NCBI RefSeq assembly: GCF_003073045.1
Contig: NC_037596.1
Coordinates: forward strand, 6,777,416 to 6,841,415
Source of the DNA: Pomacea canaliculata
Taxonomy: Eukaryota; Mollusca; Gastropoda; Architaenioglossa; Ampullariidae
Reading direction: 5' to 3'
DNA: 64,000 bases
The notes beneath the pieces were generated by a model that was given only the letters and a program-made list of their open reading frames with translations, was not told the origin of the DNA and did not search any database. Positions 695-64,000 of the stretch are shown piece by piece (position 1 is the first letter of the stretch; each line of letters begins with the position of its first letter). Position numbers and translations under genes: made by a program.

Positions 695-3388
695 CGATTG
701 AATACCAATCCCGCCCATCTGTAAATCGTGCATTGTGGACACCTCCTCCTGGAGAGATAGACACAGAGAAGGTATAACGCCCTTCTTGTGTTGGTAAAGT
801 GGAGTTGAACTGACAGAAACCTGAAACCTTCACTTCGCTCTCTGTTATTAGGTCCGTCGTTGGTGATGTCATCATGGGGGCAGAGTCCAGGATGTCTGTC
901 ATCGACTATATAAATATAACAAATAGCACAAACATAATAGCAACTCATTTAGAGAATACAGAGACACAACCAAATTGTATAATACAAAGGTCGTCATATT
1001 TCAATTAGTAAGCTTAATAAACCCATGATTTAATCTCTTTTCTAATTAATCTGATCATGAAGGTCAAAAGGTCACTTTTAACACTATTTTTTTCACTTTC
1101 ATCGCTTTTTTTTGTTGTGAGTTTCAAACACACACACCACCTTCATAGGAGGGAGTAACAAGCAGCCTGCAACCAATACTCAATACACAGTTACATTATA
1201 CTGTATCGTTACACACATAGAATTGCGATACGAGAGAACATTTTGTACTAATACACTTCAACTGAGTGTACCAACAGTGTAATAGATTAATTGATGGATG
1301 GAATGAGCGATGTAGAGAAGTACGAACAAAGAAGCAGGTAAATGGAGGAAGATAAAATAGATACAAGCCTACAATCGTTTATACTCTATACATACACCAT
1401 TGGTGAGTCGACAGAGCTGACACGTGTACAGCCTTCGGGAGGAGTAGACTCGACCGATGACACATGACACACTGAGAGACCCTGAGGTGGTGACCGCTCG
1501 GCACGACACATTCTCAGGAAGATCTTACAGAAATTAGCAAGAACATGATTACTTCAGTGTGTGCGTGTGAGTGTGAATGACTCAAAAAAGAAGAAAATCA
1601 GAGAAAAAGAGAGACAGAGACAAATAACAGAGTGAGGCACACGAGCGCAGAGAAACCAAGAAATAATGCACGGCCATGTTTTTATAAAATAAAGTTAAAA
1701 CAATCAGCAAAAATAGAAAGCGTTATGAAAGGGAAATAAATAAAAGAAACAACAAACTCAAACTTGGTCACGTGTATGTCTGCGTATCTACTTACACGCG
1801 AGATAGAGAGGAGTTAGAGTATGTGTGTGGGTGTGAGGGGTTGCAATAAAGTTTTAAGTAAAAATTTTAAGTAAAATATCTCATAAAAATGTTCAAGTGA
1901 AAGTGGAATTAACGAAGAATTAAGAGAAGTAGATAATAGAAGACATCAAAATAAAGTTTGTATTGAGTGACATAAAAGATGTGGTCACATTTATCATTAT
2001 GTATGCTTAGAAATAAGCAGCTTCATATAAATGTCAGGTCTATGATTCTAGTCTAGAAATAAAAACAAAAATTTGAGGCTAAACTCTATGAAGGGTATAA
2101 CAGGAAAATATAGAGCTTTCGTACAGCTTCACTGATATTGTTTGAAACTAAACACGACACGACACAGACTCAACACAGAAAGCCGGAAAATAACGAGGAA
2201 GAGCAAACTTCTCATTAACCTGTAATTCCGAGAAATAAAAATAAGATAAAAGCCTTTTCTATCATCAATCTTTCGTACAAAAAAAACAACAAAAAAACTC
2301 ACTGCATTGGTAAGAACACTGACTTAAGTGTTTTCTAACCTGACACATTTTTGTAAAATAATGGAGGATGTTTTACAAGTATGTGACGATGACGGTCCTA
2401 TAAACCTTTTCAGTCGTTAACATAATTCACGAAGCTAGACTAATAAGAAACACGTACACACGAAGTTGAGCTGATAGCAGTCTAACATGGACCCACTCAT
2501 CTCGTTACACGAGAGGCTCCCGTTCACCAGCTGCACCGACTCCCATATCTTCGTGTTGTTCACAGCATTCACAACCATCATTCTCTGACCATCCACCATC
2601 CTCAAGAGGAAAAGTCCGCCAACTTCAGTGGAAACATAACATGTACCAATACTTTGTGGACACGACACCAGCAGATCGGAGTCCTGTGAGTCGCCAAATT
2701 GCACTCGCCACTGAACAGGACCGTTGGCTCTGCAGGTGAACTTTGTGGTTTGTCCCCAAGTGACGTCATAGATACCGTTGTCCCTGCACGGCTGGAGAGT
2801 TATACCTGTGGAGTACAGGGTGACAGTGGATTATTGGTTGGGGATGACAAAGCAGGTTATGATGAAAGGATGACAGAGCAGGGTATAAGCAGAGGGTGTC
2901 AGAGCGGGTTAGAAGTCTACAAAGTTTATATTCTATAAAGATAACTCGACTCTTTCAGAGATAGTCTTTCGAATAACTCACATCAGGTGACAACAATGTG
3001 CATCATAGCCATTCTTTCAGATACGCAGACAAGTAACTGACGGACACCCGGACAGACTGTCTGCCATACTGAAAATGAGTTACTTTTAACCGAAATACAA
3101 ATGAATAAAAAGAATACATTTAGGATTTTACAAACCTTTTCCCAAAACTGGCATGAAAGAAACTAAAAATTAGCTTATTGCAATTAAGATGAGAGCTGCA
3201 GAAAAAGTACACTAAAGAGAAAATACTCACGTCAGCTTCAGTTTACCTTTTTCTTTGACTTCATTAGCAGTGGTTTCTAGAAATCTATTCCATAATAATC
3301 ATTGTACGTTAAGTTCTAGTAAAATATGGGATATACCTTCGAAAAAGGACAATCCAAGCACAAGAGCAAGAGTGTGGACTGTGTTCAT
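695..3388 (-). CDS. IgA: secreted/membrane protein with Ig-like domains, family I, partial
   Basis: Four exons on the minus strand: exon 1 at 3337-3388 (signal peptide, starts MNTVHTLALVLGLSFFE), exon 2 at 2458-2805 (Ig-like domain 1), exon 3 at 1396-1523 and exon 4 at 695-905 (together Ig-like domain 2). Introns are phase 1, 1, 0 and then 1 after exon 4, all with GT donors and AG acceptors, exactly as in IgB and IgC. Domain 1 shows the Ig pattern KFTC, a Trp in VQWRV, and a late Cys in NGSLSC. Domain 2 begins LPENVSC and continues VSCVIGRVYSSR, then in exon 4 SGFCQFNSTL. The start is the only Met before the hydrophobic stretch. Exon 5 (domain 3) and any anchor lie outside the window. The family resembles the Ig part of gastropod Ig-containing recognition proteins, but no lectin or fibrinogen domain is seen. 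Role in recognition is inferred; the gene model is well supported by its paralogs. Confidence 0.8.
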
Positions 3389-3745
3389 TATCCAAATTCC
3401 AGGAGTGACTCTGACTACCTTGGTTATTTTTTTTGTTAATTAGTGTTAGGTAAATCCACCTACATATTTGTTCTACACCTCGAGCACAGTTGCTATCAGT
3501 TAGACAGGTCCATACTGTTGCTGTTAAAATAGGAAAGACTTTTTTTCAGAAGTGAAACGAGGAAAGAAATTAGTCTTGATGGCTCAAGCTACACAATACC
3601 TTAATATGTTCCTGGTACGAACTTCGCTAAGTCGACCTTTCCGATGTCGAATTAGTCAGTCCCTGGCCTTTACTATTTACAGGACATTCAACACGGAAGC
3701 TTTTCCTAATCGTTGAGAAAGACTACATTTCAAAGGACAATTACT

Positions 3746-4233
3746 TTACTCATGAAGAAGTACAGACAAGAAAATCATCGCTAAAATTCCACCTACAATG
3801 AAAGGAAGATATTCATCCTTGGCATCTCTAAACGCTTGATTCAAAGCTTTGGCACAGACGTTTACATATCTATAGATATATCCCTGATACACAAACACAA
3901 ACGAACACAAGCACAGACACAGATGATGTAAACTAAATACTATATGTATGGGATCTTTGACTGAAATGTGAAGGAGGGTATGAGAATGACACAAGATAAG
4001 ATCCGCACGAGGTAGACATTCTCTTCAGGGGACGGAACAACTGTTGTACTCGCTTGTTGGTGTTTAGAAGAGTTACTGTCCTTGAATATGCATAAACATT
4101 TAATGTCGAGCACAAGCCTGTTGTCGTGGCGACATAGATACAAATGTCCGAAAGACAAGATTTCTGTCTTTACACGTATAAAAGATGGCTGCCTCATTTC
4201 ATACATTCTATTCTGCACAGTTTTTCAAACTGA
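3746..4233 (-). pseudogene. possible relic of a family II-like gene (C-terminal part)
   Basis: On the minus strand, 3970-4215 reads ...DIKCLCIFKDSNSSK... followed by a Ser/Thr-rich stalk. The DIKCLC motif recalls the LECKLC end of the family II ectodomains. A separate open frame at 3749-3870 ends in a hydrophobic tail (FIVGGILAMIFLSVLL) and a stop, like an anchor exon, with a usable AG acceptor just before it. I found no consensus donor linking the two pieces and no signal exon, so this is either a broken gene or chance. It lies just upstream of IgA exon 1 on the same strand. Confidence 0.3.
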
Positions 4234-10530: not shown

Positions 10531-10585
10531 ATATGTAGTATCGCAGTTAACACGTGATCTTCACGCCACGAGGCAGGAGGCAACA

Positions 10586-13500
10586 ATGAAGCTTATTCCT
10601 TTGCTCATCATTTTCACTTTATTCCCTAAAGGTTTGATGTTGATAGTTTAAAATGATCAAAACATTATATTTACTTGTTTATAAAGTAATTTATTGAAAC
10701 TTGTTTGATCTAACGTGGTTACTGTAACACAGATACGTTTTTTACAAGTAGGTCAATGCACTAGACCAGACCTGGGCAAAGACCGGCCGGCCTTCTCTCT
10801 CTGATTGGCCCGCCCGCTGGCGAAGGGATAGTATATATACTATATATAAAGTACTGGGTAAAACTGAGTTAAATATATTACTCCGGCCCTCTAACACCAT
10901 CCCAATTTCTCATGCGGCCCCTTGGGAAATTAATTGCCCACCCCTGACTAGACAGTGATTTAGAGGAATTGAACGTGTTTATCAAAACTTTCCATTGTTA
11001 ATTTTTTATGAACTCTGACTCTTGAGATCTCAAAAAGCCATTCGTTAGTAGATCGTTTTGTTTAGCCTTCTTTCATATACATACTTTTTAGTTTATACAT
11101 ACATTGCTTTCAAAGACTTTGATGTCTGTAGTTTGGTGTTCTTACTTTATACTTTTTGTATCAAGGTTTGTGCTAGCATGATAAAGGTTTGCTTTGTTTA
11201 TTAGTTTTTGCAAACCTCTAGTGTTTGTATTATTTGTTACTAGTCTGCTGAGGCAGAACAGTTCTAATGGGTTTGTAATGTAATCATTTTAACTTTAATG
11301 ATCTTAAGAAATCCAAAAAGTATGGGATTCAGCTTAAATGTGTCTGTGACCAACCCAAAGTACGAGCTGAGCTCTGTTAGGAGTGATGTGCAGAATTTTT
11401 TTAAATTTCATTTGAAAATGGTTGTGTCCAGTTTTAGGATACTTAAAATCAAATTTTATATGGTATAAAACACACGCCGAAATGTTTCTTACTTACCCTA
11501 ACATAACACTTCTGACAGTTTTTAAAGGAAGCAGTATGTTACAGACTATTGATGAGATTAATTTTTAGTGCTATAAGTTGTTTACTTGTCAGAAGTTTGG
11601 AATGCGTGATTAAGTCCGCACATATTTAATCAAATAAAAGCCAAAACACCTTATCAGTGTTCACTTACGAATATTCTTTATGACATGTTTAAAATCATGT
11701 ATTACTTGCAAAAATCAGGAGCAAATTATAATGAACATCAGTGTGTCGTAAGCCTTTGTTGGGTTTTTAATTCCGGACAAAACCACAGAATAGGGCTTAC
11801 GTGTCTGTGGACTGTTCCACGTATTTAACCAATCATGTGAAATAATTCTTTTTTTCACTATTCGATATATTGAAGATATTTCTTCAGTTGGTAATTATCT
11901 TTCTCCTTTCTTAGATTTTGACTATTTTCATAACTTCAGTTGACAGTGCCTTTCGTTGTGATGTAAAAAATAGGGGATACAAGTACGAAAGACGAACATC
12001 TTAAGGAGATAAATCACTACACAACTGTAAACTAATTAATCCTATTCTTTTTTCAGCAGACTCCTTTTTTAGTTTGGAATTTCAGATCATAAAGTATTAT
12101 TTAAAAATATTTTTATTGTTTCAGTATTTGCGTCAAACTCAGATACGTGCTGCGCCCAACGTTTAGACGACAAGATAAATGTAACCTGCACCTTCGACGA
12201 GACCAACTCTGATGGCTCAACTGCTCGGAAAACCCCTTTAATTGAGGTCACCTTCATTAACAAAAAGACAGTTTCTGTGATATGTCCACTTAATTTCCAA
12301 AATTACATAAATGGAGTAGGGAGCTGCAGCTGTACCAGACCATCCTCATCATCGGCTTTCCGCTGCACTGCATTGCTTGCGAGCAACAAAAAAGATGTCC
12401 GAAAAGTAGTTTGGAAAAGTGTTAGTGGGCAGGAGATGGATGTCTCAAAACTATACCAGACCTGTAACACTGCATCATTGAGTAAGTATAAATCAACATT
12501 CAAATAAGAAAGAATTTCGTTTAGAACAACAACAACAGCAACAACAACAAAAATTTGCTAACACACCTTGCCGGTGTCTCGATCGGTCTTAATTTGTCTC
12601 CTTTTCAAGCAAGGCACTAGTGCAGCGGTTCTCAACCTTTTACTTGTGACGCCCCCCCTGACGAACACCAGTACGTCCGCGCCCCCCTTAGTCGAACGCC
12701 GCGTCGAGGAAATCAATGAAATTCAACAACGGAAGAACAAAGTTCGTATCTGCAAGAAGTATAACTGTTAATGAAATTTTACTAAATCAAATTCTGCGGT
12801 GCTAATAAATATTATTTTATTGGACTCTCACTTTGATTAATGAGAAGGTTGAGCCTGCTCGCTGTTACATAGAGAAGCGAACCTGGGTGCGATGTTCGTA
12901 CCCACTGCTATTCGCAGCTCAGCCTCTGCGTCCACACGACTTCTGTATTGAGACTTCAGTGCTGCCAATGCTGAAAATCCTTGCTCACACATATACGAAG
13001 TTGAAAATGGCAGAAAAAATTTCATTGCTTTCTCAGAAAGCACCGTTAACGCTAATCCATAATTTTGGCACTGGTGTTATTTGGAAGACCATTTTCAGGG
13101 ATTGGTCACTCGAAAGGTCGATGCGGAGCTCTTCTTCTTCCGTGGACAACCCGCTTGTGCTAGGATCAGCCAGAAATGGATTACGAATCCAATCGTATTT
13201 AGTCACATCAATTTCAGCGAAGTAATGCTGAAACCTTTCTTGCAGTCCGTTTAGATGGGCAATAATTACATTCTTCACCTGATCAAGATTCAAGTTGTCA
13301 GCCTTGCACTTACACAAGCACGGAAACATCAAAAATATTTTCTTGACGTATCTTTTGCGTCCACAACGAAATTGTTCGGACGAAAGCATTCATCTTGTCA
13401 GTTGTTTGTAATATGGTGGTGTCTTAACCTTGCAGAGAAGTATTCACAACGTTCAGCTTCTCAAATATGTCCGATAAATATATCATTAGCAGCAGTCATC

Positions 13501-14345
13501 GGTCGTTCTTCAGCCCCCACTCCGCACTGTCTGGTCATGGCCTTCTGTCAAGGAACTAGAGTACTAGGACTGAGAAGTGCGAGGGCGAAAGGGTGTGAAT
13601 GATGGACGTTTCCTGAATGAGTGCCGTTTAGATGTTTTTTTTTTTAAAAAAAAAGAGAGACGTGTGACTGGAGAGGGAGAGGGGAGTCAGCGATGAGAGA
13701 TTGGTGGAGAGAGAGGGCAAAAGGCGAGAGGAGGGAGATTGGAGGCTTAATTGTTGAGAGGGGGATTGTGTTTTGAGTTTTGGAAGTGAGAAGTCACTGC
13801 ATGCCGAGAGAGTGTACTTGAGTAGGGAGAAGAGATTTGGAGTTTGCTCGCCCTCACCACTCGGCTACACAATCTAAGCTAATTTCACTAATACCAGTAT
13901 AAGAAACTTTTAAAAAAGGACCACCTTCGCGACCCCCTTGTAGGCACGTCGCGACCCCCCAGGGGGTCGCGCCCCACAGGTTGAGAACTGCTGCACTAGT
14001 GGAAGTCATATAATAGCTTATAGTTGATACCAGTATACGACTACCACTACCATCACTTCTAGATTCCATACTCCTCTGCTGATGTATTATAAATGAAGAT
14101 GGAAATGGCATAAACTGTGTTGGTGTGATTGTGTGTTGCTGGCTGTCTGCACATGCACACAGAATGTGTTGTTTGTGTAACTTCGTGTGTATACATACTT
14201 ACAAATAATGTGGTTAATTTTACGTTTTTTTCCATATTGTCCAGGAGATAATAACCGCTCTATTTCCAATGCTCCTTATGGACCCGCTGTGGTATTCCTA
14301 GTCATTGTAGCTGTGTTGGCTGTATGGTGCTAACCAAGACATTTG
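10586..14345 (+). CDS. G1: small cysteine-rich, probably GPI-anchored surface protein, family II
   Basis: Three coding exons: 10586-10631 (signal peptide MKLIPLLIIFTLFPK), 12125-12481 (ectodomain) and 14245-14345 (anchor, TAA at 14331-14333). Both introns are phase 1 and the sum is 492 nt, 163 residues. The ectodomain carries paired cysteines (SDTCCAQR, INVTCTF, VSVICPL, GSCSCTR, FRCTAL) and probably folds as a compact Ig-like or cysteine-rich domain. The tail RDNNRSISNAPYGP then a hydrophobic stretch ending in VWC* fits a GPI signal; a single transmembrane segment is the alternative. A donor 12 nt after the stop (TTTG/GTGAGT) and an acceptor at 14827 give a 3' UTR intron, as in G2. Intron 2 hosts a hAT element. 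A LINE ends 55 bp before the ATG. Function unknown; ligand or receptor at the cell surface is inferred. Confidence 0.8.
10767..10946. mobile_element. hAT-type MITE (family shared with 30221-30418)
   Basis: The element starts CAGACCTGGGCAAAG and ends TAATTGCCCACCCCTG, imperfect inverted termini of hAT type. It is flanked by ACTAGAC on both sides (10760-10766 and 10947-10953), close to the 8-bp duplication expected. Its interior matches the 30.2 kb copy closely (CGGCCC-rich head, TCTCATGCGGCCCCTTGGGA near the end). It lies in intron 1 of G1. No coding capacity. Confidence 0.85.
10954..12124 (+). other. intron 1 of G1
   Basis: AT-rich intron sequence between the signal exon and the ectodomain exon. 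The acceptor at 12123-12124 is preceded by a T-rich tract. I saw no other exon or repeat in it. Confidence 0.6.
12623..13993 (-). mobile_element. hAT transposon, internally decayed (ZBED-like transposase)
   Basis: Terminal inverted repeats CAGCGGTTCTCAACC and GGTTGAGAACTGCTG are flanked by a perfect 8-bp target duplication, CACTAGTG (12615-12622 and 13994-14001), the hallmark of hAT. Minus-strand frames at 13033-13389 and 12837-13043 encode the C-terminal part of a ZBED/SCAN-type transposase: LNGLQERFQHYF, then the dimerisation region FLPFSTSYMCEQGFSAL. The frame changes between them and the N-terminal catalytic part is missing, so it is dead. It sits in intron 2 of G1, antisense to the gene. 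Confidence 0.92.
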
Positions 14346-25753: not shown

Positions 25754-29192
<3,439 letters not shown>

Positions 29193-44104: not shown

Positions 44105-44106
44105 TA

Positions 44107-46550: not shown

Positions 46551-46552
46551 TA

Positions 46553-47514
46553 GTTATATCTTATGAAAGCCAAACTATTGAAAGCAGGGTAGGTCACAAG
46601 TTCTTTGAATACTATACATGTATAAAACAGAAAACTGTCGTTTAATAGCGCTTTTGACAATAACAATAATAAGTTACAGGTTAGTATGTCCTCCTTTCCA
46701 ATGATTCTATCGTAAATTTCGATTTTTCGTGTGTTCTGCATCTAATTGCTATAAAATGATCATTAAAAATACTTCTATAGCTATCAAACATTTTTTGAGC
46801 TTGTCTGCTTTCTTCCAGAATATTTTTCTAAGTCCACATTGCTTCTTTATTCACAGGTGTAAAATCTTCTTTGTCATTCAAATAGTATTTTTTTCCGCTT
46901 TGTGTTTTCTTACTTGTAGTCATAGATTTTGGCTGCTTTCTGTAAGCATACCTCGCTAGGAGTTCGATTCTGGGTAGGAGATGCTATATCCTGCTACACC
47001 GGATCGAATGTCTTTAAAAAAAATGACAAGAAATGAAAATCTGGTTACAAATTCAATGTCTACAGTGAAAACTTAACTTGAACCTTCAGTAACTCGATTT
47101 CTTCATCGATCTATTAAAGCTACGACTTATATACAAATTAAATTAACCCTAACCCTGTATATACAGATTAAAAAAAAGTCAAACTTATATATGAAAAGAC
47201 TTGTTGAATCTTTCGTCGTTCAGTTGATACAATCATCTGCATAGCACGAGCTCATCTTTTTTTTACAAATGATAGTAAATGCTCGGTTACTGATTATGTA
47301 AATACGCTCCGATCTCTTCTAATCAGTCGTCACTTGACGGTTATATCTGTCGTTGGGTGCAGGGGGGTGGGTGGGGGTTGGGGAATCAGGGCCGGCAACT
47401 CTGCTGCGTTCTTGCTGTAGGTAGAGTAGGCTTCCCCTGCTTGTGCAAAGCCATTGTCAAAGAAAATACATTCCACTCGCGAAGTCACCAGGGTGCAACT
47501 GTCACCAAAAAGCT
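46553..47514. other. spacer upstream of G3b
   Basis: Counterpart of 37020-38003, with the disrupted copy of the unrecognised frame at about 46580-46900. A G-rich patch (GGGGGGTGGGTGGGGG) lies near 47362. No exon is supported. Confidence 0.5.
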
Positions 47515-50500: not shown

Positions 50501-51000
50501 AGTCATGTTCGGTCAGGAGTTTGAGAATTCTCCTCGTAGTCGGGGGACACATTAGCAGAACTGGACTAATTGTTGCTTGGATTTCACTGTTCAGGAGGGG
50601 CCGGTCCCTCCGAGCTACTACTTTAGCTCTGTAAGTGATAATTTCTCTCTGTTAGTCATTTTTTACAATCATTGGAAATTCCTATGACACATGCAGTTTT
50701 TGTTTTTCTGATTTGCTATTTTTAAAACTTAAATAAAGAGAAGAGTTATGAAAAATATTTGATACATGATTTGGTCATTTCAGTTTTATTTATACCTTTA
50801 TCTAAAGTTTTACTCATAGTGTAATTCCTGAAAGTGAATGTAGTATTTTGAATTGTTTGGTACTAGTCAGATGATGGGGGGCGATGTATGTGCCCAAAGT
50901 TGGTATGTTTATTGAAGTTATTTTGATCTAAAACCAACATAATTTTTATGCCATCTTTTTTTCAGAAAAGATCAGGGGAAACTACATCAGAACACAAAAA
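47515..51000 (+). pseudogene. G3b: copy of G3a, frame-shifted (decay or sequence error)
   Basis: Signal exon 47515-47563 is intact (MGFQIILLLVSSLMPL). Ectodomain exon 47878-48263 keeps its splice sites but is 386 nt, so out of frame; differences from G3a are mostly one-base gains and losses after about 48130. The anchor exon near 50525-50635 carries extra bases in its hydrophobic part (around 50597), as does the flanking intron. Intron 2 holds the same LINE as G3a. Upstream and downstream stretches match G3a far better, so poor base-calling across 48.1-51.3 kb is a real alternative to true decay. Confidence 0.7.
48345..50450 (+). mobile_element. Rex1-like LINE, second copy (duplicated with the gene)
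   Basis: Aligns along its length with 38786-40830 and has the same left junction (TTCAGACGGGTGCGCC), so it was copied with the gene and did not insert independently. Many short indels break the frame; fragments such as KASGPDG, FRPVAL and FKYLGTIFDRRLFWDVDTQ remain readable. Confidence 0.85.
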
Positions 51001-52405
51001 CCAAAGACTTTGTATACAGTATGTTTGCCACCGTGTAAGACACTAAGAATCACTTCTTTACAATTATAAAGCAGCTAAAACTAGAGTGCCTGGCTTTGAC
51101 TGTTGAAGTCCATCCCTTCAGGATACCTTGTCTATCCTTAAGACTCAACTTTTTGTGGGGAAAGACAGTCCTTTTAAAGTATCAACAGGCATTTGTAGTC
51201 TTGGTTAAATTTCAAAATAAATAATACATCAGAAAAGAAAGAAAGTTTCTGTGATAGTATCTTGAATATGTTGTTGCTGTGAAGTTAAGAAAACTGTGAC
51301 TTACACTAATGTACAAGCACAGCACAACTCCCTAATCTGTCCATGGAGCCACATGTTCCAAACTCTACAGTTCATCAACATTATTTCAGGGCCCAGACTC
51401 ATACTCACCTTTTTGTCAAGTCTTTCTCCACATCAGTCTTAGCTTATCAACCTTCGAACGGTCCTGTTCATTGCTCTTGCCATGAGATAGCCGCAGTTGC
51501 TGACATGGTGTAAAACACCTACTAACAATCAGGCAGTGAAGGAAGTCAGATATATTTTGTGGCTGATGAAAATGCTGATTTAATTTTTGTTGTTGCTGTG
51601 ATTATTTGTAATTGAAGTTGTGAAAATGATGATTTATTGCATCACTCTGCTTCTCAATGATGATTTAGCCCACCACTTGCCTTATACTTTATATAGAAAA
51701 ATACTTTCAAAGTTAATGTACTTAAAAATTATACTATTTTTAACTGTTTTGAGTTAAGTTGTGAACTGTATTTGCTTTGTGGCAATTATTAAAACAAGTT
51801 TTATAAAGAAATATTGGTGCTTTTTTTACATTTTGCTTTATGAAAGCAGTTACAAACCTTGTTCTGCTAAGCTGTAAGACGGGAAAAAATCCCTGTTAGC
51901 GTGTTGAATTTTTACTTTTTCTTTTAGAAATAAATAAAATTTTTATTATTCGATGTGGAAGAGAGTGCCACTGCTTAGCAGCACAGAGGGAGGACGCCGG
52001 TTGTCCGTATGTGACTGTCTGTGTGGGAGGGAGGATAGAATGTCGGAGTCCGATGAGGAGTGAAGGCTTCGGGCAGGAGTGTGGACAGACAAAGGAGAAG
52101 GCATCTTATACTGGGTCATGCATCGACCTGATGATCAGTAAGTGCAGTCAGTCGATGTTTTAAAAGAACTCTTGTCTGACCAGTCTTCTCAAACTTGAGC
52201 GCAAACGTCCATCTTCGCGCCAGGGGAAACTGTGTGCGTGTTTTCACATCATCGGAAACGATATGCAAACATATATATCACTTAAGATAATTGCGTTTGG
52301 TACAGTGACTACCTTCTGCTTTACGTTAGAATAAGACTTCTAGTATTGTATCAGCTGCAACGATTTGTGTAAGTAAGAAGTCTGAAAGCTCCGATATACT
52401 TTTTA
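51001..52405 (+). other. 3' UTR and downstream of G3b
   Basis: Counterpart of 41307-42765, including the repeat at about 51960-52100. Few indels after about 51.3 kb. No additional gene seen. Confidence 0.55.
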
Positions 52406-52609
52406 GTGAGTGAAAATCATGGAGATTGTTGAACCAGACAGACGGACAGAGGAAAAGAAAGAGGAAGGACTAGGCTGAGTGTCGAGAAACAGTCGGAGTA
52501 GTGAATGGAAAGATGGAGAACTTAAGGTCATAATCAGAATGGAGTGACTGACAGAATCAGCAGCAATCTTCGCTAATATATCATTCACCTGTCTGTATTC
52601 AGTGCGTAC

Positions 52610-53978
52610 ATCTTTCATTCTAAGCAGTTGACAGGTGTAAACTCCCCGTGAAGAGTAGACTTTCCCGAGGACACAGGACACAAGGACAGACCAGGATGTA
52701 ATGTCTGCTCGACATGACACGTCCTCCGGGAGATCTGTTAAGCAGTCGATGAGTGTAATCAGTATTTCAGTGAGTAAAGAAAAAAGAGGAAATGAAAAAG
52801 AAGTTAAAGCGAGGAGAAGAGGAAAGTAAAACGACACGGCGCATGCAGAATGAAGAACATAGCTTGTGCAATTTGTTAATCGGGAAATGGGGGAACAAAA
52901 GGAGGGAATCGCTACCAACAAATGCAATACTCATAACAGCGTAAGAAGACCACAAACCGACTTTACAGCATCAAAACCCACCCACCCCCAACACACACAC
53001 GACACAACCGACTGTCAACTAGAGTTTAAACCTGTGTTTAGGTCGTCCTCTGGAGCGTCCGTATGTAACGGGACAAGGTTTAACTAGGTTTTGTATTGAA
53101 AGTGCGATTATGAGAAAAAAAGAGAATAGGAGGGGTTAGGGAAATGAGGAGCGAAACTTACTCATACCTGAGGACATTGATATAAAGAGGAGCTAACGAT
53201 ATGAGAGCTAGCCATTGACCGAAATCAGGATCAGACCTAATAGTTCAGTTTATAATCTAGAGGTTTCTCTTCTGTATACGGTCGTCAGCAGATGAGGATT
53301 ACTCGAAATGTCAATAAGACTTGACAAGTCAAGGGTGCGCAACACACTTAAAGAGGTAGTAGGGTACATTTTTTCTGGTGATTGGATGCTGCAGTACAAG
53401 AATTTCCCCAAATCGAAGTGAATACCCCTGTTTCATTCTCCAGACATACGGTCACAAACTATTACCATGCACAGAAAGTAAGTCACATTCGTGATGCCAC
53501 AATATGCTTAATAAACATATTTCTCCAGCTGTTCTATTGACTGAAACTTCACAACTGGAGCATATCCATATACTTTGCACAATCCTGACCTCTATGTTAA
53601 TGTGCATTGTAATTTGGTATCTTTGTGTATATCGAAAAACTAAACAGGGTATTGTCCCAGATTTATTATAAGAACAAAGGGAAGTTAGCTAATTGACAGA
53701 ATTGAGAACAGAGAGAGAGAGAATCGTCAGCGAGCTAATTTAGATAAATGCAATTGATTTAATAGTCCAAGCACGGTTCTGTCTTGTTCGAAATCCGGGA
53801 ATAAGTTCAAAAGTATACTTAAATGCTTATTACATGCATTTTTGTTGGGAACGGGAGGGGCTGTCAATTATATTTTAAGTCATTATTCAAAACGTAAAAT
53901 TCGCGGAAAAAAAAAAACAACTTCACCTTCAGATATGGACATCCCAACCACAAGCAGAAGTGTGTGTATTGCTTAAAT
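52610..53978 (-). pseudogene. relic 2 of an IgC-like gene (exons 1 and 3 only)
   Basis: Exon 3 at 52610-52734 is open and 125 nt like IgC (LPEDVSC, VSCVLGKVYSSRG). The dead signal exon at 53927-53978 shares with relic 1 both the lost ATG and the early stop. Domain 1 is missing with the same junction as relic 1 (near 53665). The two relics therefore descend from one already-broken copy. No pogo element is present here. Confidence 0.85.
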
Positions 53979-55488
53979 TTTCAAGTTTGTGAATATGGGG
54001 AATGCCGCAATTAAAGCTACGTGTGGGTTTGAAAACCTCGAGGCACCAGGACAGCTCAGGGAGGAAATGTGCTTTAAGCACTATAGACAGTCACCCAATG
54101 TTTCTCCAAGCGACTGTAGACAGGTCAGTCAGCTTTCTTGCTGTGTGCAACTATAGAACTCAGAAAAAAAAAAAGGTGTTTGTGAGGCACTTTTTTTTTT
54201 ATTTCTTTAATCACATCCTTGTCATGCCGGAAGAGAAACAGCGGAAGTAATTGCCGTGCACGTTCAAATCACGATCTCATATTACTGGGACTGCTGGCAG
54301 ACAAACGACGCATGATGTGTACAAAGCTTCGGTTTAGTCACATTCATTGTTTAGACTAGCCGAGACTGACAGACAGAGAACTTCGCAAGAGGCTAAGCAT
54401 TGGTCCTGGCAGACAAAAAGACAGCAGTCCACCTAACACGTCCGTGGTCAAACTGCACAAAATCTCTGACAAATGGCGTCTCTATCGGTACTTTAGCTTT
54501 TTGGTGCAGCTTTATACAGGAACCTGAGGGAGGGTAGTTATATCTTATGAAAGCCAAACTATTGAAAGCAGGGTAAGTCACCTAGTTCTTTGAATACTAT
54601 ACATGTAATAAAGAAAACTGTCGTTTAATAGCGCTCTTGACAATAACCTCCAAGTTACAGGTTAGTATGTCCTCCTTTCCATGATTCTATCGTAATTTCG
54701 ATTTTCCGTGTGTTTCTGCATCTAATTGCTATAAAATGATCATTAAAAATACTTTTATAGCTATCAAACATTTTTTGAGCTTGTCTGCTTTCTTCCAGAA
54801 TATTTTTCTAAGTCATAATTGCTTCTTTATTCACAGGTGTAAAATCTTCTTTGTCATTCACATTGTATTTTTCCGCATTGTGTTTTCTTACTTGTAGTCA
54901 TAGATTTTGGCTGCTTTCTGTAAGCATACCTCGGTAGGAGTTCGATTCTGGGTAGGAGATCCTATATCCTGCTACACCTGAGTGTCTTTAAAAAATGACA
55001 AGAAATGAAAATCTGGTTACAAATTAAATGTCTACAGTGAAAACTTAACTTGAACCTTCCGTAACTCGATTTCTTCATCGATCTCTTAAAGCTACGACTT
55101 ATATACAAATTAAATTAACCCTAACCCTGTATATACACATTTAAAAAAAGTCAAACTTATATATATAAAAAAGACTTGTTGAATCTTTCGTCTTTCAGTC
55201 GATACAATCATCTGCAGAGCATGAGCTCATCTTTTTTTTTTACAAATGATAGTAAATGCTCGGTTACTGATTATGTAAATACGCTCCGATCTCTTCTAAT
55301 CAGTCGTCACTTGACGGGTATCTGTCGTTGGGTGCAGGGGGGTGGGGTGGGGGTTGGGGAATCAGGGCCGGCAACTCTGCTGCGTTGTTTGCCGTAGGTA
55401 GAGTAGGCTTCCCCTGCTTCTGCAAAGCCATTGTCAAAGAAAGTACATTTCACACATTTCACCAGAGTGCAACTTTCACCAAAAAGCT
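53979..55488. other. spacer between relic 2 and G3c
   Basis: Counterpart of 36468-38003. Carries the disrupted third copy of the unrecognised frame (about 54600-54880). Scattered one-base indels relative to unit 2 at 53.5-54.7 kb. Nothing else recognised. Confidence 0.5.
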
Positions 55489-58400
55489 ATGGGATTTCAG
55501 ATTATATTATTGCTCGTCTCCTCTCTAATGGCATTAAGTAAGAGTCGTGTGCTTTTATTGCTAGTGTTACTCAATATTTCTTTTTATACGTACTCGCACT
55601 CCAATACTAGTTTCTGAAAAGTGCAGCATTATTGAAATTATTTTTATTTATGTTTACACTTCATTGTCATTGTCCGACATAGATGACATGTTGCGATTTT
55701 GTGTTATGGATAAAAAAGAGGTTTTGAAAGAAGAATGTCATAGCTTGGCAACTGTATGGCAGTGAACTCTAGGTGGTTCAATGTATTAAAAAAAAAAAGC
55801 TGGCTACGCAGGGTGATGGCCAACCTTTTACTTACACTGGGTTTGTTCACTGAAAAGTCAGATACCCATTACCAATGGGTGTGCAGGGAGATTTTTCCGC
55901 CACAGTGCTGACCACGGTGTGTAACAAGAAGCTTCTGCTAAATTGTTGAGTACTACGATCATGTTACCAGTCTCGTCAATACAGCTGCTGAATGAAATTG
56001 TATATTTGTTTTTGGTTATGCAGCATATGTGAAAAAGACATTGATTGAAGCGGCCAGGCACACTTGAAACTTTTTGATTTTACTGCCTTTCTATGGGTTT
56101 GCATATATAGATGTGTATGTGAAGTGTAAATAAATATTATTACATTTTATCCATAAGTACATTCATACTTACAGTCTAGCCTTTAGTGTCTTATTTACAT
56201 CTATTTCATTTGAGAATTTTGTTTGCAGCATGGGGGCTTGGTGTGGATTTAAATTGTCCAATGACCTTCAGAAGTGGCATAAACAACATTACCTGCAAGA
56301 TCAATAAGACAGCCATTGAAAATGCTGATTGTAATTTCAAGCAAAACTCGGTGACATTTGACCTTACAGTGAATTCTGTTCCTCGCACTGTGTGCTATGT
56401 TGCATATGACACTCCAGAAATCTGCACTGGAGACCAACATCAAAAGGGTTGCTTTTGTACTAAACAAGTTGGCGATATTTTTGAGTATGGATTTATTTTC
56501 CAGTACAACAGTTCTGAACACAAACATGGAAGTTTGGAGTGCAAACTTTGCGTTTCACCTAAAACACTTAATGTAACAACCACTGATAGCTGCAAAAACT
56601 TTACAGAAGAGGGTGAGTGAAATTTATATAATTTTGATTCAGCATTCTATCTCTTGTTTGGCATTAATTGACCAGATTAAAATTAAAACGACTGAAAATT
56701 TGATTCAGCTTCTTTTGTCTGATAAAAAGATTTTTAAAACTAATAATAAAAGTGGTATATTTAAAGTTATCAAAATATGTGGCATGCAGATATACAGGAC
56801 ATTACTGCTTTTAGTGAGTTATGACATCAGAGAAATAAGAAGTGCTTGAGCCTTTAAAGAACCTAAGGCAGAGTGCAGTAATTTGGTAGTGTACACAAGC
56901 CTGGATGGAATGGAGAATTGGAGAATATGGAGAAAAGAATTTGTATTATGTTGTTTGCATGTCTGGAGTATGAGTTGAGCTGCATCATTTCAGAATTGTT
57001 GGAGCTTGTTAGTAAGGTACAGAGAACTGCCAGACAAAAGAACATTACACAGGGTGAGGAGTAGGTTGCTGTAGCCTAGAATTCCTAAGAGCAGTACGTC
57101 ATTTACTAGTGGTTTATTGGTTGAGAGCTCAACATGTAGAAAGCGGAGATCAGTCAAGATCAGTATTTCTTATCTCATTTTGCATAAAGTAGAAGTGATC
57201 ATCTACAAGTAACACTGTAGCTACCTTTTTATTTGACAGTGACATACCTCACTGTAGACACTGAGCTTAAATGCAGATAAGAAACATTTCTGAAAAATTT
57301 ATAGTTATTATTAATAATGAGTTAACTGTTTACATAGCTTTTAACTAAACTTAAATTCTACATCTTCAAAACAGTTGTTCATGTTTAACCTGCTGTTTAA
57401 GGGGCCTGGCATGTACTTGGATGCTATGATTGAACAATAGTATCCCTTACTTCTTTTTTTTTCCTTTCCATCACTTCATTGTCTTCATTTTCACAAGCAT
57501 TTTATCATACGATGAGACACTTTTATTATCGTTTGACATTAAACATGGTAAGGTTAACTTCACCTTTCATGTGCCATGCTTTGGCCATGCTTTAAAGTGA
57601 CAGACTGCATGTATGTGTGTATGTTTGTTTAATTGTTTTTTGTTATGTTGACAGGCGAGGAGAATTCTCCTAGTAGCGGGGGACACATTAGCAGAACTGG
57701 ACTAATTGTTGCTTGGATTTCACTGTTCAGGCAGCTACTACTTATGCTCTGTAAGTGATAATTTTCTCTGTGTTGTCATTTACAATCATTAAAAATTCTT
57801 ATGACACATGTAGTTTTTGTTTCTGATTTATCTTTAAAACTTTGAATAAAGAGAAGAGTTATGATAGATTTGATACAGATTTGGGCATTTCAGTTTATTC
57901 ATACCTTTATCTAAAGTTTATTCATAGTGTAATTCCTGATAAGTGAATAGTGGTTCCCAGTCACTTAATCCCCAGACACTTCATCCCCGACATTTAATCC
58001 CCGACACTTCATCCCCTAGACTTTTAATCCCCAAGCACTTAATCCCCAGACACTTAATCCCTAAACTAAATCCTTAACTAAAAAAATTATGAAGTCAGTG
58101 AAAAATTTAATTGAAATTCAAATTCAAATCATGCTTTTAACTTCAACGTCATTTGAACATCTACAACATTAGTTAAAGTTCATATAAGCTAGTAAATTTA
58201 ATGTTCTTCAACAATATATACAGTATATACGTATGCTCGAAGTAGGGTAGAAGTTCCGGCATGCGATCATGTTGTGGCATTGACTCTGCTAGCAATTGGA
58301 AGGAATCAACAATGTCTTCTTCACGTACATAGGCAAGTGCTGGGAGGCATCTGACCATTCCACGTCACTCGTCGTCTTCATCGTCACTTCTCATCGCCAG

Positions 58401-59811
58401 TTCAGTGACTTTGCATAATACCGCTTGACTTCAACGAAAGTAACATCCCGTTACTTTACATGACTAAAAGCGGTCATCGCAGCTTTCTCAAAGTCTGTTA
58501 CTATAGTCTCTGGGGCTACATTAGGCATTAGCTCTCAAACTTCATCCAACAATCTATTATAGGTTGCACTTGATTTATAAGGATTAAGTGTCTGGGGAGT
58601 AAGTGTCGGGGATAAAGTGTCGGGGATTAAGTGTCGGGGATGAAGTGCTTAGGGATTAAAAGTCTAGGGGATGAAGTGCTTAGGGATTAAAAGTCAAGGG
58701 GATGAAGTGTCGGGGATAAAGTGTCGGGGATTAAGTGTCGGGGATGAAGTGCTTAGGGATTAAAAGTCTAGGGGATGAAGTGTCGGGGATGAAGTGCTTA
58801 GGGATTAAAAGTCAAGGGGATGAAGTGTCGGGGATGAAGTGTCGGGGATGAAGTGTCGGGGATTAAGTGTCGGGGATGAAGTGTCTGGGGATTAAGTGAC
58901 TGGACACCGTGAATAGTAGTTTTATTGTTGTTGTGCATTGACATTTTGCCTAACATTTGTTTTTTATTATATAATGTTGGATCTTTTTCTGCTCTTTACA
59001 CCTTTTTACACACTTTTATTTAACTTGCTCTGTTTGCTTGCCTGTCTGTCCATATATGGATTTTAATTTGTAATCAGTTTTCACCCACTTTCTATTGTCC
59101 TAGATGTCGGAAATTTTCACCAGTTATTCAGTTCTGGTGACAAGGCAATATTAAAATATTTCCAGCTGTCCACAAGTAGTAAAATTATTTGGTTTCTAAT
59201 TTTTAGGAACTATAGTTATCTTCCCTAATTCGGCCTACAAGTAGGAAATAAATTAACAAAGAAAATTTAAAAAAAAATATATAACAAAATTCAAAGAGAG
59301 CTAAAAGCTTGAAATAAGGAACACTTTTTAAAACACACTTTTAATTAAAAAATACTAAAAAAGGTAAAATAATCTTTATCATTAGGTGTTAAGATTTTCT
59401 TTAATGCATATAACTTAAAATGCAAAAGTGTGAGAGGCACTCTAGGAACTCAAAATACTCCAAGACCCCTCACACTTTACATTTTCAGTGTAATCTAAGT
59501 TCATCCCTGGGGTATCATCAAAGGGAATTAATGCCAAGGTGGATCGAGAAAGAACTTGATAAACATATAGGAGTTGTCTGGTCATTTCATGCAGAATCTG
59601 TTCGCTACGACTGCATGTAGGCTTTGTGAACCATTGCATTTATCCAGTTGTTAACCCCAACAACCATTTTAGTTGACTGACATAGCCACTTATCTCTTGG
59701 TACTAGTCAAAGGATGCGTGGATGGATGTATGTACCCAAAGTTTGTATAGTTTATGAAGTTATTTTGATCTAAAACCAACATAATCATTATGCCACCTTT
59801 TTTTTTCAGAA
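55489..59811 (+). CDS. G3c: small cysteine-rich, probably GPI-anchored surface protein, family II
   Basis: Four exons: 55489-55537 (signal peptide MGFQIILLLVSSLMAL), 56229-56612 (ectodomain), 57655-57750 (anchor) and 59810 onward, where AA completes a TAA stop split by the last intron (T at 57750). The predicted protein has 176 residues with no internal stop. Cysteines and flanks match G3a (NNITCKINKTAIENADC, GCFCTKQVGD, GSLECKLC), but the loop regions differ: SYMQRS is NFKQNS, KVKSTTST is TVNSVPRT. Intron 2 lacks the LINE found in G3a and G3b, so this is the unoccupied allele of that site. Intron 3 carries a MULE-like element and about 760 bp not seen in the other units. Intact and probably functional; ligand unknown. 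Confidence 0.87.
57951..58908 (-). mobile_element. MULE-like DNA transposon with repetitive subterminal arrays
   Basis: Both ends contain CAGTCACTTAATCCCC in inverted orientation, and the element is flanked by an 8-bp duplication GTGAATAG (57943-57950 and 58909-58916). The ends are arrays of 14-16 bp units of the type GGGGATGAAGTGTC / GGGGATTAAGTGTC (about 58590-58890 right, 57968-58075 left). The minus-strand interior encodes pieces of a MULE transposase: RCLPALAYVREEDIVDSFQ, LLPYFEHTYI and PETIVTDFEKAAMTAF, the last fitting a DDE Asp. Most of the gene is missing. Lies in intron 3 of G3c only. Confidence 0.85.
58917..59705 (+). other. intron segment unique to unit 3
   Basis: G3a and G3b join GTGAATAGTAGTTT...TTGTTGG directly to TACTATTCAGA-like sequence, while G3c has about 760 bp more between these points. 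I saw no terminal repeats. An A-rich patch lies at 59265-59285. It may be ancestral sequence lost from the other copies, or an insertion. Confidence 0.5.
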
Positions 59812-61852
59812 AAAAATCAGGGGAAACTACATCAGAACACAAAACCAACGACTTTATCTAGAGTACTGTCGCCACCTTGTAAGACAATAAGAACACTTCT
59901 TACAACTATAAAGCAGCTTAAACTAGAGTGACCTGGCTGTACTGTTGAAGTCCATCCTTCAGGATACCTTGTCTATCCTTAAGACTCACTTTCTATGGTG
60001 AAAGACATCCTTTGAAAGTATAAACAGACATTTGTAGTCTTGGTTACATTTCAAAATAATAATAATCAGAAAAAAAGAACGTTTCTGTGATAATCTTGAT
60101 ATGTTGTTGTTGTGAAGTTAGAAAACTGTACTTACACCAATGTACAAGCATTGTACAACTTCCTACTCTGTCCATGGAGTCGCATGTTTGCTATAAAACT
60201 TTTATTCCTCTCCTATTCCAAACTCTACTGTTCATCAACATTATTTCAGGGCCCAGACTCATACTCACCTTTTTGTCAAGTCTTTGTTCACATCAGTCTT
60301 AGCTTATCTAGAGTCTAAATGTTTCACCTGATGTAATATGCCCTGTTTATTCAAAGGCTTCTTAGTTTACATAACTAAAAAAAGAATACTCTATATCCTC
60401 TTCCAATATCATTGTCAACTTTCGAATGGTCCTGTTCATCGATCTTGCCATGAGAACCTTCCGTAGTTGCTGACATTGCGTAAAACACCTACTAACAAGC
60501 AGGCAGTGAAGGAAGTCAGATATATTTTGTGGCTAATGAAAATGCTGATTTAATTTTTGTTGTTGTTGTGATTATTTGTGATTAATGTTGTGAAAATAAG
60601 GATTTTATTGCATCATGTAAAAGACCTTCCATCACTCTGCTGCTCAATGGAGATTTAGCCTTACACTTTGTATGGAAAAATACTTTTGACGTCAATGTAC
60701 CTTAAAATTATACTATTGTGAACCGTTTTGAGTTAAAGTTGTGAAATATATTTGCTTTGTGGCAATTATTAAAACAATCTTTATAAAGAAATATTGGTGC
60801 TTTTTTACATTTTTGCATTATGGAAGCAGTTTACAAACTTTTTTCTGCTGAGGTGCTAGAGGGAAAAATCCATGTTGCATGTTGAATTTTTAATTTTTCT
60901 TTTAAAAATGAAATTTTTAATATTAAATAAACATAATTTCTATTTTAAGTATTGTCTTTTATATGTGCTGTTAAACGTATTAATGTTGTGAAATGCTTAA
61001 AAAAATTGATATCACCAATAACACCAAGGGATAGTACTTTGTGAAAAGATATGTTTTCAGTGAACATTTGAATGCAGCCTTGTAGTCCCAGTGCGAATAT
61101 GATGTGGAAGAGATTTCCACTGCTTAGCAGCACAGAGGGAGGACGTCCGTTGTCCGTATGTGACTGTCTTTGTGGGAGGGAGGATAGAATGCGGGAGTCT
61201 GATGAGTAGTGAAGGTTTCGGGCAGGAGAGTGGACAGACAAGATGTCAGTAAAGTAGTGATGTGAGGAACATTCAAAGAATCCATAGCACAGAGTTGAGA
61301 GGTTGTAGTTTATTTTAGCTTGAACTGGTACTTACAGACACCTGAGAATAGCAAGAACAAACTTACCGACTATCTTTTTCTCGGAATTTTATGATCTGCT
61401 AGATTACAGGAACAGAATCAACAGACGCAGTTCTTCTTGGAGTTATTAATATGCCCTTTGACAGCTCGTCTCATCTTGACAGTGTCAACAGATCAGAAGC
61501 GCGCTTCACACTTTATATTTTTTTTCTAGTCCATCTCGCAGCCAACTCACAAAAGAGAAGGCATCTTATACTGGGTCATGCAACGACCTGATGATCAGTA
61601 AGTGTTTTTATAAGAACTCTTGTCTGACCAGTCTTCTCAAACTTGAGTGCAGATGTCCATTTTCGGCGCCAGGGGAAACTGTGTGCGCATGTTTTCACAT
61701 CCTCAGAAACGGTATGCAAACATATATATCACTTAGGATAATTGCGTTTGGTACAGTGACTACCTTTCTTCTTTATTTTAGAATAAGACTTCTAGTATTG
61801 TATCAGCCGCAACGATTTGTATAAGTAAGAAGTCTAAAAGCTCATCTATACC
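59812..61852 (+). other. 3' UTR and downstream of G3c
   Basis: Counterpart of 41307-42765 with extra insertions, among them about 110 bp near 60315-60410 and about 320 bp near 61235-61555, neither recognised. The repeat at 61090-61240 here has a longer 5' body than in units 1 and 2. No gene supported. Confidence 0.5.
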
Positions 61853-61860
61853 TTTTAGGC

Positions 61861-62318: not shown

Positions 62319-62339
62319 TTTTAGGCCGTTGGGAAGTGA

Positions 62340-62500
62340 GGTGTTTGATACCTCACTTTTTTCTGTGCTAGATTTGTGAAAACCCATCTTCTCTCCTCAT
62401 CTTCAACCCTTGGGAAGACTGGGTAAAGGTTTTGGCGCCACACGGGTATCGAACCACAGGGTTCGGAAACTTGCCCTCTAACCACTCCGCTTCTAACCAT
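62340..62500 (-). repeat. tRNA-derived SINE
   Basis: On the minus strand, A box TGGTTAGAGGG (62474-62484) and B box GGTTCGATACC (62445-62455) at tRNA spacing, in a head beginning GGTTAGAAGCGGAG. The body runs left towards GTTTTCACAAATCTAGC. Not the same family as the 8.0 kb SINE. Confidence 0.75.
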
Positions 62501-62903
62501 ATACTTTGTCTTTCCAGACTCTTTAAGACATCCAGATATTTGGTGTGCAATCTTCACGTGAATTATTTGACGTCACTGAATGGGTTTTGACCTTTTTTGT
62601 CTGGAAAAGGTAGAAGTGGGCGGTGAGCAAGTTTTCCATGCAGATGTATATTCACACTCACATTCATAACGCACTCTTCACAAAACGTTACAGCGAGCAT
62701 CTCGACTTCTAGCGCGAGAAAACAGATGATGGCGGCCGTGGGATCTAACAGGAGTGTGAGCCTATTCCAGGCTGACTTAGATACTCATGATCGCTGTTGA
62801 TCTAGTTGTATGAAGTCAGTGACTGAATAAGGAAAGTAAAGTATTTTTTATGCTAGGAACTCGTCATCAGTGTCCTAGATGCAGCATTCGCAGCTTAGAA
62901 ACA

Positions 62904-64000
62904 ATGAGATCAACTGCCTTCCAACTGTATGCAGCTGTTTCAATCTTTCTGGCTATGGCGCCGCTAGGTAAGTTAAGGCACTTTAATTACATTTAAACTG
63001 TAAACAGCAGCTGCAATTATTCATACCAGCGATTTACTTTCCATAAAATGCCAGATCAGGTAGCCGCACCCATTGTGACGGATTGACGCTCCAGTGGCAG
63101 TTAACGGGTTCGTTAATTTTACATTCCAGCAGATACTTTCTTATAAGTGTTAATAGCAAAAATTACCAAAATTTAGCTAGGCTAAACGCTGAAAACAAAT
63201 TTTAGTCCACAGAAAACTCCCAGGAACTAAGTGAAAAGAAAGAACAAATTTGATATGCCACGTTGAACGGAAAGAATGTTGGATTTGACAAGGGAGGCAA
63301 TCCGGCTGAAATGCTTTCATAACTCTTGTCCCTGGTATCTTCCCTTGATTTTCTCCTGTCCTTTTCTAAATTCCTTCTCTTCTCTCAAAGAGGTCGTAAT
63401 TTTACAGTTTCATTGAAATTTGGTAGTTTCATATAGACCTATTGTATAGAATTTCCCTTTAATTAATGAATGCTTATAATTTGCTCCAGCAGATTGTAGA
63501 GGGGCTTTAAGAAAAAAGAGAGAAGGTGGTGGGTGGTCCTTCCATCTTGTGGGCACGAATGAAGTACACGCAGCTCTGCGGCAATCTTTCGTCTAAAAAC
63601 TTCAGAATTTGTTATTTTGTCCTTTTGCCTTGTTATAAAAGCAGTTTCAAGAAACCCAGAGGTCCTAAACATGAGTGAATAAACAAACACCAAAAATTTG
63701 CATGAAACAGTGCTACAGTCTGATGAAAAATTGTGCTGGAAGTGGAATATAACCCATTATATGTTTGCTATCTTTGAGATATGAAGGTTGTAATTTTCAA
63801 TGCTTAATTTCTTTAGTCAATTCTGCAGTAAACAACAACAAATAAAAAGGCTTATAATGGAATATTTTATGTAAAACTTCATGTAGCTCTTTTGTTGATG
63901 ATTATGGTATTCAATCGCTTGGTCTTGAGACCTTGAGGGCTTCTCTGCAGTTGTTTGATATGATTTTGTTTTGCTTTATATTTTTCTTGCAGTGATGGCA
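62904..64000 (+). CDS. G4: 5' part of another family II-like gene, cut by the window edge
   Basis: Signal exon 62904-62967 encodes MRSTAFQLYAAVSIFLAMAPL and ends G/GTAAGT in phase 1, exactly like the other family II signal exons. An acceptor TTTTTCTTGCAG ends at 63992 and the next exon begins with eight bases in the window (63993-64000), reading V-M-A in phase 1. The rest is to the right. Family II membership fits by position, strand and exon phase, but the ectodomain is unseen; a family I gene on the plus strand is possible. Confidence 0.6.

What the first reader, a model, noticed from the sequence alone, without database searches (positions are those of the whole stretch)
695..64000. Interleaved locus of two surface-protein families, partly as head-to-head pairs
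Three intact three-Ig-domain genes and two relics lie on the minus strand, and six small cysteine-rich, probably GPI-anchored genes lie on the plus strand. In the 35-62 kb array each family I copy stands divergently next to a family II copy; IgA and G1 are also divergent, though further apart. Members of both families start with a phase-1 signal exon. Known precedents for clustered variable surface genes are gastropod immune loci with polymorphic single-pass membrane genes, Hydractinia Alr and Botryllus fester. A receptor plus small anchored partner kept as a unit would be new. Presence of both families is seen; partnership is inferred.
Basis: partly seen in the sequence, partly recalled or inferred. 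Interest (0 to 1): 0.85.

Follow-up and report, generated by a model that had tools for sequence, protein, structure and literature searches.

The report
Snail chromosome with paired receptor genes
The window is a partly decayed edge of a much larger set of fast-changing cell-surface genes on one snail chromosome, where a small anchored protein gene repeatedly sits next to a larger receptor-like gene; what the pairs recognise is not known.

Summary
Both families are real, but the head-to-head pair is not the unit. The window lies on C7 of a 440-Mb genome that fits the apple snail Pomacea canaliculata. Family I elsewhere includes five-Ig, single-pass receptors with a tyrosine-bearing tail (IgD); 13 of 15 tail matches lie 3.0-7.0 kb 3' of a family I exon (by hand). 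The window's IgA-C show only domains 1-3; D4, D5, membrane exon and tail were not found. The two relics share one loss. Family II is small and cysteine-rich, GPI-like (by eye) in the window, often membrane-spanning elsewhere. G1 failed the membership test, G3b is broken, only a signal exon of G4 is inside. At 9.65-10.54 Mb, 19 of 24 family II genes have family I next downstream on the same strand (shuffles average 7.4 such neighbours; 0 of 20,000 reach 19); divergent copies mostly lack D3. In the window divergence is not beyond chance. Partnership is plausible, not shown: partner correlations are modest. Closest precedent: Botryllus fester/FcoR pairs (PMC12065747, passages read).

The parts
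1..3388 (-). IgA: signal exon 3337-3388, D1 2459-2806, D2a 1399-1521, D2b 693-890; D3 is -299 to 9, nearly all left of the window
25752..29192 (-). IgB: signal exon 29132-29192, D1 28173-28514, D2a 27158-27280, D2b 26236-26433, D3 25752-26057
33343..36467 (-). IgC: signal exon 36416-36467, D1 35684-36040, D2a 35176-35298, D2b 34598-34795, D3 33343-33645
   Evidence: D1 model matches Ig V domains (low confidence)
42974..45090 (-). Family I relic 1: signal exon without start codon 45039-45090 and D2a 42974-43096; no D1, D2b, D3 found
52610..53978 (-). Family I relic 2: signal exon without start codon 53927-53978 and D2a 52610-52732; same loss as relic 1
20585..21285 (+). G2 (family II): cysteine-rich domain exon 20585-20938, GPI-like last exon 21206-21285; signal exon uncertain (one candidate at 17113-17215)
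38004..40988 (+). G3a (family II): signal 38004-38052, domain 38326-38709, GPI-like exon 40885-40988; reverse-transcriptase ORF in the intron between
47515..50640 (+). G3b (family II), broken: signal 47515-47563, domain 47880-48262 with frame break, damaged GPI-like exon around 50555
55489..57758 (+). G3c (family II): signal 55489-55537, domain 56231-56611, GPI-like exon 57655-57758
62904..62967 (+). G4 (family II) signal exon; its domain starts at the right edge (63998-64381)
12124..14333 (+). G1: cysteine-rich domain 12124-12483 and GPI-like exon 14245-14333; membership of family II NOT confirmed, no signal exon found
34976..61859 (.). Tandem duplicated array carrying IgC/G3a, relic1/G3b, relic2/G3c; the newest step probably copied about 38.2-47.6 kb to 47.7-56 kb
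   Evidence: 83-96% identity

Best explanation
The window is the decayed edge of a chromosome-wide array (C7, probably Pomacea canaliculata) of two linked, fast-evolving surface-protein families. The usual unit in the largest cluster is a tandem pair: a small gene with one cysteine-rich ectodomain (family II, ending in a membrane exon or a GPI-like exon) followed on the same strand by a receptor gene of up to five Ig domains with a membrane exon and a tyrosine-bearing tail (family I). I think the pair works as a recognition module on snail cells: family I signals through its tail, family II is its ligand-binding or cis partner, and diversity comes from duplication of the pair. Shown: the families, the domain order, membrane exon and tail of IgD, the spread of D4/D5 and of tail matches, linkage, tandem excess, cysteine-keeping fast evolution of family II. 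Inferred: splicing, expression, signalling, physical partnership, immune or self-recognition role. The window's own copies are derived: family I cut to three domains (secreted or dying), family II GPI-like, and the head-to-head array copied mostly with a dead partner.
For: Genome context: II matches on C7 56 of 57, 42 of 42, 55 of 57, 12 of 14; I exon matches on C7 119 of 125, D3 77 of 82 and 87 of 91; tail 15 of 15. IgD: D1-D5, membrane exon 71610-71750 and tail in window coordinates, the membrane exon being the scan's top hit; I-set above Pfam cut-off. By comparing by hand, 13 of 15 tail matches lie 3.0-7.0 kb 3' of a family I exon on the same strand; the other two are at 27.10 and 27.47 Mb. 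Pairing: 19 of 24 II genes in cluster 2 have I next downstream, same strand; 19 tandem II-I neighbours, shuffles 7.4, 0 of 20,000. Separate genes: 3 of 4 D1 exons scanned outside the window have a candidate signal exon (L060, L064, L069; not L061; the same filter missed IgC's known one), and several II genes have their own membrane or GPI-like exon. Beyond the two main clusters 13 of 17 II matches lie within 100 kb of a D3-like match (rotation mean 2.0, 10 of 10,000 reach; matches up to E 1 used). II duplicates with dS under 0.6: dN/dS 0.33-1.22 in 11 of 12 pairs (the twelfth 2.94 with under one synonymous change), all aligned cysteines kept in 12 of 12 (pairs overlap in members).
Against: No expression, binding or polymorphism data. 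Partner co-divergence is modest: rho 0.61 (n 18; 87 of 20,000 shuffles) for one query pair, 0.39 without the four closest pairs (1,692 of 20,000); 0.41 (921 of 20,000) for a second; adding a pair left out at first lowers these to 0.57 (124) and 0.36 (1,284); shifted-partner controls reached 0.46 and 0.58. Block duplication alone gives adjacency without function. Cluster 1 shows no tandem excess (3 against 4.9) and family I at C1:31.71-31.73 Mb had no II match beside it. IgF's tail exon has in-frame stops upstream of its conserved end, so not every copy is intact. The fold of family II is unknown (AlphaFold pLDDT 30; no Pfam or PDB relative above threshold). Shuffles do not allow for shared descent.
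Confidence: 0.45

Rival explanations
1. Two unrelated surface-protein families share a duplication-prone chromosome. Pairs recur only because a block holding both was copied again and again; there is no functional partnership.
For: Array duplication is plain; the dead relic was copied along with G3; modest co-divergence; runs of family II without I at 6.71-6.74 Mb and of I without II at 6.85-6.91 Mb.
Against: 19 of 24 in one tandem orientation in cluster 2; D3 found in 17 of 19 tandem partners but 1 of 7 divergent ones (Fisher p 0.0008, tallied by hand; copies are not independent and two II genes count in both groups); co-location in distant clusters.
Confidence: 0.35
2. The window's three-Ig genes are working secreted proteins (soluble decoys or opsonins) derived from the five-Ig receptors, and the GPI-anchored G genes are their surface partners.
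For: IgA-C have open exons, kept splice sites and signal exons and pairwise dN/dS 0.25-0.40 (dS 0.9-1.5, near saturation); in IgB and IgC an in-frame stop follows D3 within two codons; no convincing membrane exon was found by the scan that found it in IgD.
Against: IgD also has a stop just past D3, so this is not special; missing 3' exons equally fit truncated, dying copies.
Confidence: 0.4
3. The families serve reproduction (gamete or seminal recognition) rather than immunity.
For: Fast evolution with kept cysteines and near-confinement to one chromosome fit reproductive proteins as well (inference).
Against: Tyrosine-bearing tails point to signalling receptors; no evidence on sex or gonad.
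Confidence: 0.15

Closest known systems
Botryllus schlosseri fester family / fester co-receptor (FF/FcoR) pairs (PMC12065747, passages read)
   Same: Two multigene families; each member of one encoded next to a cognate of the other; one partner is a multi-Ig type I membrane protein with a long tyrosine-motif tail.
   Different: FF has Ig + sushi + three membrane spans; FcoR has V-Ig, sushi, two C2-Ig. Here no sushi domain in IgD, five Ig-like domains, and a one-domain cysteine-rich partner. Homology was not tested.
Biomphalaria PTC1 (GRC) and PTC2 clusters (PMC7494358, passages read)
   Same: Gastropod clusters of diverse single-pass membrane genes, some members lacking the membrane span.
   Different: PTC2 proteins are reported without known domains; family I here has Ig domains and lies in more and larger clusters. 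Polymorphism and parasite resistance not tested here.
Molluscan FREP/CREP (FREP recalled; CREPs and a lectin with two Ig domains plus SRCR in P. canaliculata mentioned in PMC9178244, passages)
   Same: Ig domains in snail defence proteins.
   Different: No fibrinogen, C-type lectin or SRCR domain in IgD; membrane exon and tail present.
Hydractinia Alr genes (recalled; signalling motifs mentioned in PMC12065747 passages)
   Same: Clustered recognition genes, some with tyrosine motifs.
   Different: No second small family paired with each gene, as far as recalled.

Membership tests
Immunoglobulin superfamily (family I) | Ig-fold domains | tested here: met
   D4 of IgD (I-set 28.8 against 23.7 bits) and of L054 (Ig_3 34.9 against 30) pass Pfam cut-offs; D1 model, pLDDT 50, best PDB matches mostly antibody V domains, none at E<=0.001. 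Five D1-D3 pieces of the window scanned alone: no Pfam match above cut-off.
Immunoglobulin superfamily (family II) | Ig-fold domain | tested here: inconclusive
   Profile comparison with D1-D5 found nothing, but its sensitivity was low also among D1-D5; fold model unusable.
Botryllus FF/FcoR | Members of two families encoded side by side | tested here: met
   19 of 24 in cluster 2; not so in cluster 1 as a whole
Botryllus FF/FcoR | Sushi domain | tested here: not met
   None listed for the 746-aa IgD at E up to 1
Botryllus FF/FcoR | Co-expression and role in fusion/rejection | not testable with these tools
   No expression data
FREP/CREP | Ig domains plus fibrinogen or C-type lectin domain | tested here: not met
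   Neither listed for IgD
Biomphalaria PTC/GRC | Hyperdiverse alleles linked to schistosome resistance | not testable with these tools
   One haplotype only
ITIM/ITSM receptors (consensus recalled) | [ILVS]xYxx[ILV] or TxYxx[VI] in the tail | tested here: inconclusive
   IgD and IgF tails hold TEYVEV, which fits the recalled TxYxxV (IgF's exon has in-frame stops upstream); IgD's other tyrosines (MYANI, EYINT, IYTSADL) do not fit a strict ITIM. Letters of the other 13 tails were not available.

The most novel reading that the evidence does not exclude
Apple snails carry a chromosome-wide system of paired recognition genes: each unit couples a small, fast-changing anchored protein to a five-Ig receptor with a signalling tail. 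It arose independently of the fester/FcoR pairs of sea squirts, so paired recognition supergenes have evolved more than once.
Probability: 0.3. Interest if true: 0.85.

Novelty: new variant of a known kind. Interest (0 to 1): 0.6.

Why it matters
If the pairs work together, a caenogastropod snail would have a large germline receptor repertoire built from two-gene units on one chromosome, a direct comparison for sea-squirt and cnidarian self-recognition loci and a candidate for how an invasive snail recognises infection or self. It gives testable predictions: co-expression in haemocytes, binding within pairs, and haplotype differences in pair number.

Tried and rejected
Structure of the family II domain from three window sequences: pLDDT 30, not used. 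Profile comparison of family II with D1-D5: nothing, but not informative because D1-D5 barely find each other. A faint thyroglobulin type-1 resemblance around the CWC motif of family II (2 of 29 members, best E 0.019; two IGFBP chains at E 0.54 and 0.78) is a lead only. The idea that in cluster 2 the II domain is simply the first domain of the I gene was set aside: separate candidate signal exons (3 of 4 scanned) and separate ends, though no transcript proves it. Membrane exon for IgA-C: candidates were weak beside IgD's. IgA-C tail: none. Searches counted G1 as family II before one search removed it; this touches cluster 1 and the window only, not cluster 2. One search scored 121 of 233 candidates, so family I counts are lower bounds. 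The signal, membrane and GPI scans are hand-made filters without a calibrated error rate: the signal filter missed IgC's known exon and the GPI filter missed G3c's known exon, which lies in its range. Co-divergence used 15 of the 19 tandem pairs of cluster 2 besides the query pair, plus three of cluster 1; two pairs were dropped for lack of D3 (II at 10.482 and 10.525 Mb) and one (10.349/10.368 Mb) was left out at first and added, which lowered both correlations. Matches with E up to 1 enter the distant-cluster test.
Full report
What the window is. Size and chromosome-like contigs fit Pomacea canaliculata (440.07 Mb, 14 chromosomes; PMC6129957, passages); the species is an inference.

Family I. 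IgA, IgB and IgC each have a phase-1 signal exon and exons D1, D2a, D2b, D3 on the minus strand; D3 of IgA is left of the window. Copies to the right (IgD, IgE, IgF, between 72 and 93 kb in window coordinates) and in a second cluster show further Ig domains, D4 and D5 (D4 was matched for IgD but not for IgE or IgF, D5 for all three). IgD continues with a membrane exon, a linker exon and a tail exon of 145 aa; IgF shares them in part, but its tail exon has in-frame stops before the conserved end. The tail query found 15 places, all on C7; set against the map by hand, 13 lie 3.0-7.0 kb 3' of a family I exon on the same strand, the other two at 27.10 and 27.47 Mb. D4 passes Pfam's I-set cut-off. 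The D1 model is of low confidence but its best PDB matches are mostly antibody V domains, none at E 0.001 or better. For IgA-C neither D4, D5, a convincing membrane exon nor a tail was found, with IgD's membrane exon as positive control in the same scan.

Family II. G2, G3a, G3b and G3c match a profile built from 28 members, which include G3a and G3c; G1 does not. The 29-sequence alignment has C9, P10, C22, C78 and C106 invariant. Window members end in an exon that looks GPI-like by eye; no GPI predictor was run. Of the 28 loci scanned, 10 by my reading are followed by a membrane exon (near 6.62, 6.66, 6.68, 9.66, 10.35, 10.41, 10.45, 10.47, 10.519 and 10.525 Mb); G4 and three others look GPI-like (6.69, 6.74, 10.14 Mb); the rest had no clear end within 1.5 kb, and the filter missed G3c's known exon. 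No known fold was recognised. Recent duplicates (dS under 0.6) evolve fast: 11 of 12 pairs have dN/dS 0.33-1.22, the twelfth 2.94 on under one synonymous change, and all aligned cysteines are kept in every pair; the pairs overlap in members.

The array. Self-comparison shows blocks at about 35-43, 43-53 and 53-62 kb with 83-96% identity. Relic 1 and relic 2 share the same lost start codon and an upstream indel, so the simplest reading is that family I died once and was then copied with its G3 neighbour. G3b is broken too. So of three head-to-head copies only IgC/G3a has both genes open.

Is the pairing real? Family II matches are 56 of 57 on C7, family I exons 119 of 125. In cluster 2 (9.65-10.54 Mb; 35 family I exon groups, 24 family II) 19 family II genes have family I directly downstream on the same strand; shuffling labels gives 7.4 tandem neighbours on average and none of 20,000 shuffles reaches 19. 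Divergent neighbours: 7 against 3.9 (3.1% reach it). Cluster 1 has no tandem excess (3 against 4.9); its divergent count (4 against 2.1) is reached by 7.3% and its convergent count (5 against 2.6) by 3.5%. In cluster 2, D3 is found (tallied by hand) in 17 of 19 tandem partners but 1 of 7 divergent ones; two of those seven do have a tail match (near 10.39 and 9.80 Mb), so not all are dead, and two II genes (9.816 and 10.349 Mb) count in both groups. Far from both clusters 13 of 17 family II matches lie within 100 kb of a D3-like match, 2.0 expected on rotation.

Are I and II separate genes there? D1 has a candidate signal exon of its own in L060, L064 and L069 of cluster 2, not found in L061 of cluster 1; the filter also missed IgC's known one. 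Several II genes end by themselves. So most likely yes; no transcript was available.

Do partners co-diverge? For II at 9.816 Mb and its partner, similarity to the other pairs correlates at 0.61 (n 18, 87 of 20,000 shuffles), 0.39 without the four closest. For II at 10.137 Mb and its partner it is 0.41 (921 of 20,000), and one shifted-partner control is higher, 0.58. Adding a pair first left out gives 0.57 and 0.36. Suggestive at best.

Mechanism. Most likely a surface recognition module: family I signals, family II binds or modulates. The tail of IgD and IgF holds TEYVEV, which fits a recalled switch-motif consensus; IgD's other tyrosines do not fit a strict ITIM. Partnership is inferred. The window shows derived copies: three-domain family I, perhaps secreted, and GPI-like family II.

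Literature. In the rows listed by searches (for instance 20 of 250 papers, 12 of 136) I saw no title on these families in Pomacea; unlisted rows were not seen. I read passages of PMC7494358, PMC9178244, PMC12065747 and PMC6129957 and only listings of the rest. The Botryllus review describes FF/FcoR pairs encoded side by side and expressed together, so the idea of adjacent receptor partners is not new; a gastropod version with these domains was not seen in those rows.

Noticed in passing
window 38468-40516 and 48740-50042: Reverse-transcriptase ORF (RVT_1 in the 38.8-39.9 kb piece) of a LINE-like element in the intron between the domain and GPI-like exons of G3a, with a decayed copy in G3b; no matching stretch in G3c, so it probably entered before the G3a/G3b duplication.
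   Followed up: partly
window 9703-10560 (-): Another reverse-transcriptase-like ORF remnant by eye; DUF6451 match in the 9.70-10.23 kb piece.
   Followed up: partly
window 43230-44110 and 45640-46550: Insertions with terminal repeats that look by eye like small DNA transposons, one inside relic 1; no Pfam match for the 45.96-46.23 kb piece.
   Followed up: partly
window 12600-14010: Insertion inside the G1 intron with inverted ends, hAT-like by eye; no Pfam match for the 13.03-13.39 kb piece.
   Followed up: partly
window 57955-58061 and 58578-58903: Minisatellite of about 14 bases and its inverted partner in the region after the G3c last exon.
   Followed up: no
C1:31.71-31.73 Mb: A small group of family I exons on another chromosome, with no family II match beside it.
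   Followed up: no
C7:8.29-8.41, 22.8, 24.2-24.5, 26.3-26.4 Mb: Mostly weak D3-like matches in further places on the same chromosome, with no family II match there or 125: perhaps older branches of the family.
   Followed up: no
C7:9.656 and 10.349 Mb (L025, L023): Close copies of a family II gene (dN 0.03) 700 kb apart on opposite strands, each with a lone divergent D1 exon about 2.05-2.08 kb away: a head-to-head block copied with an incomplete partner.
   Followed up: partly
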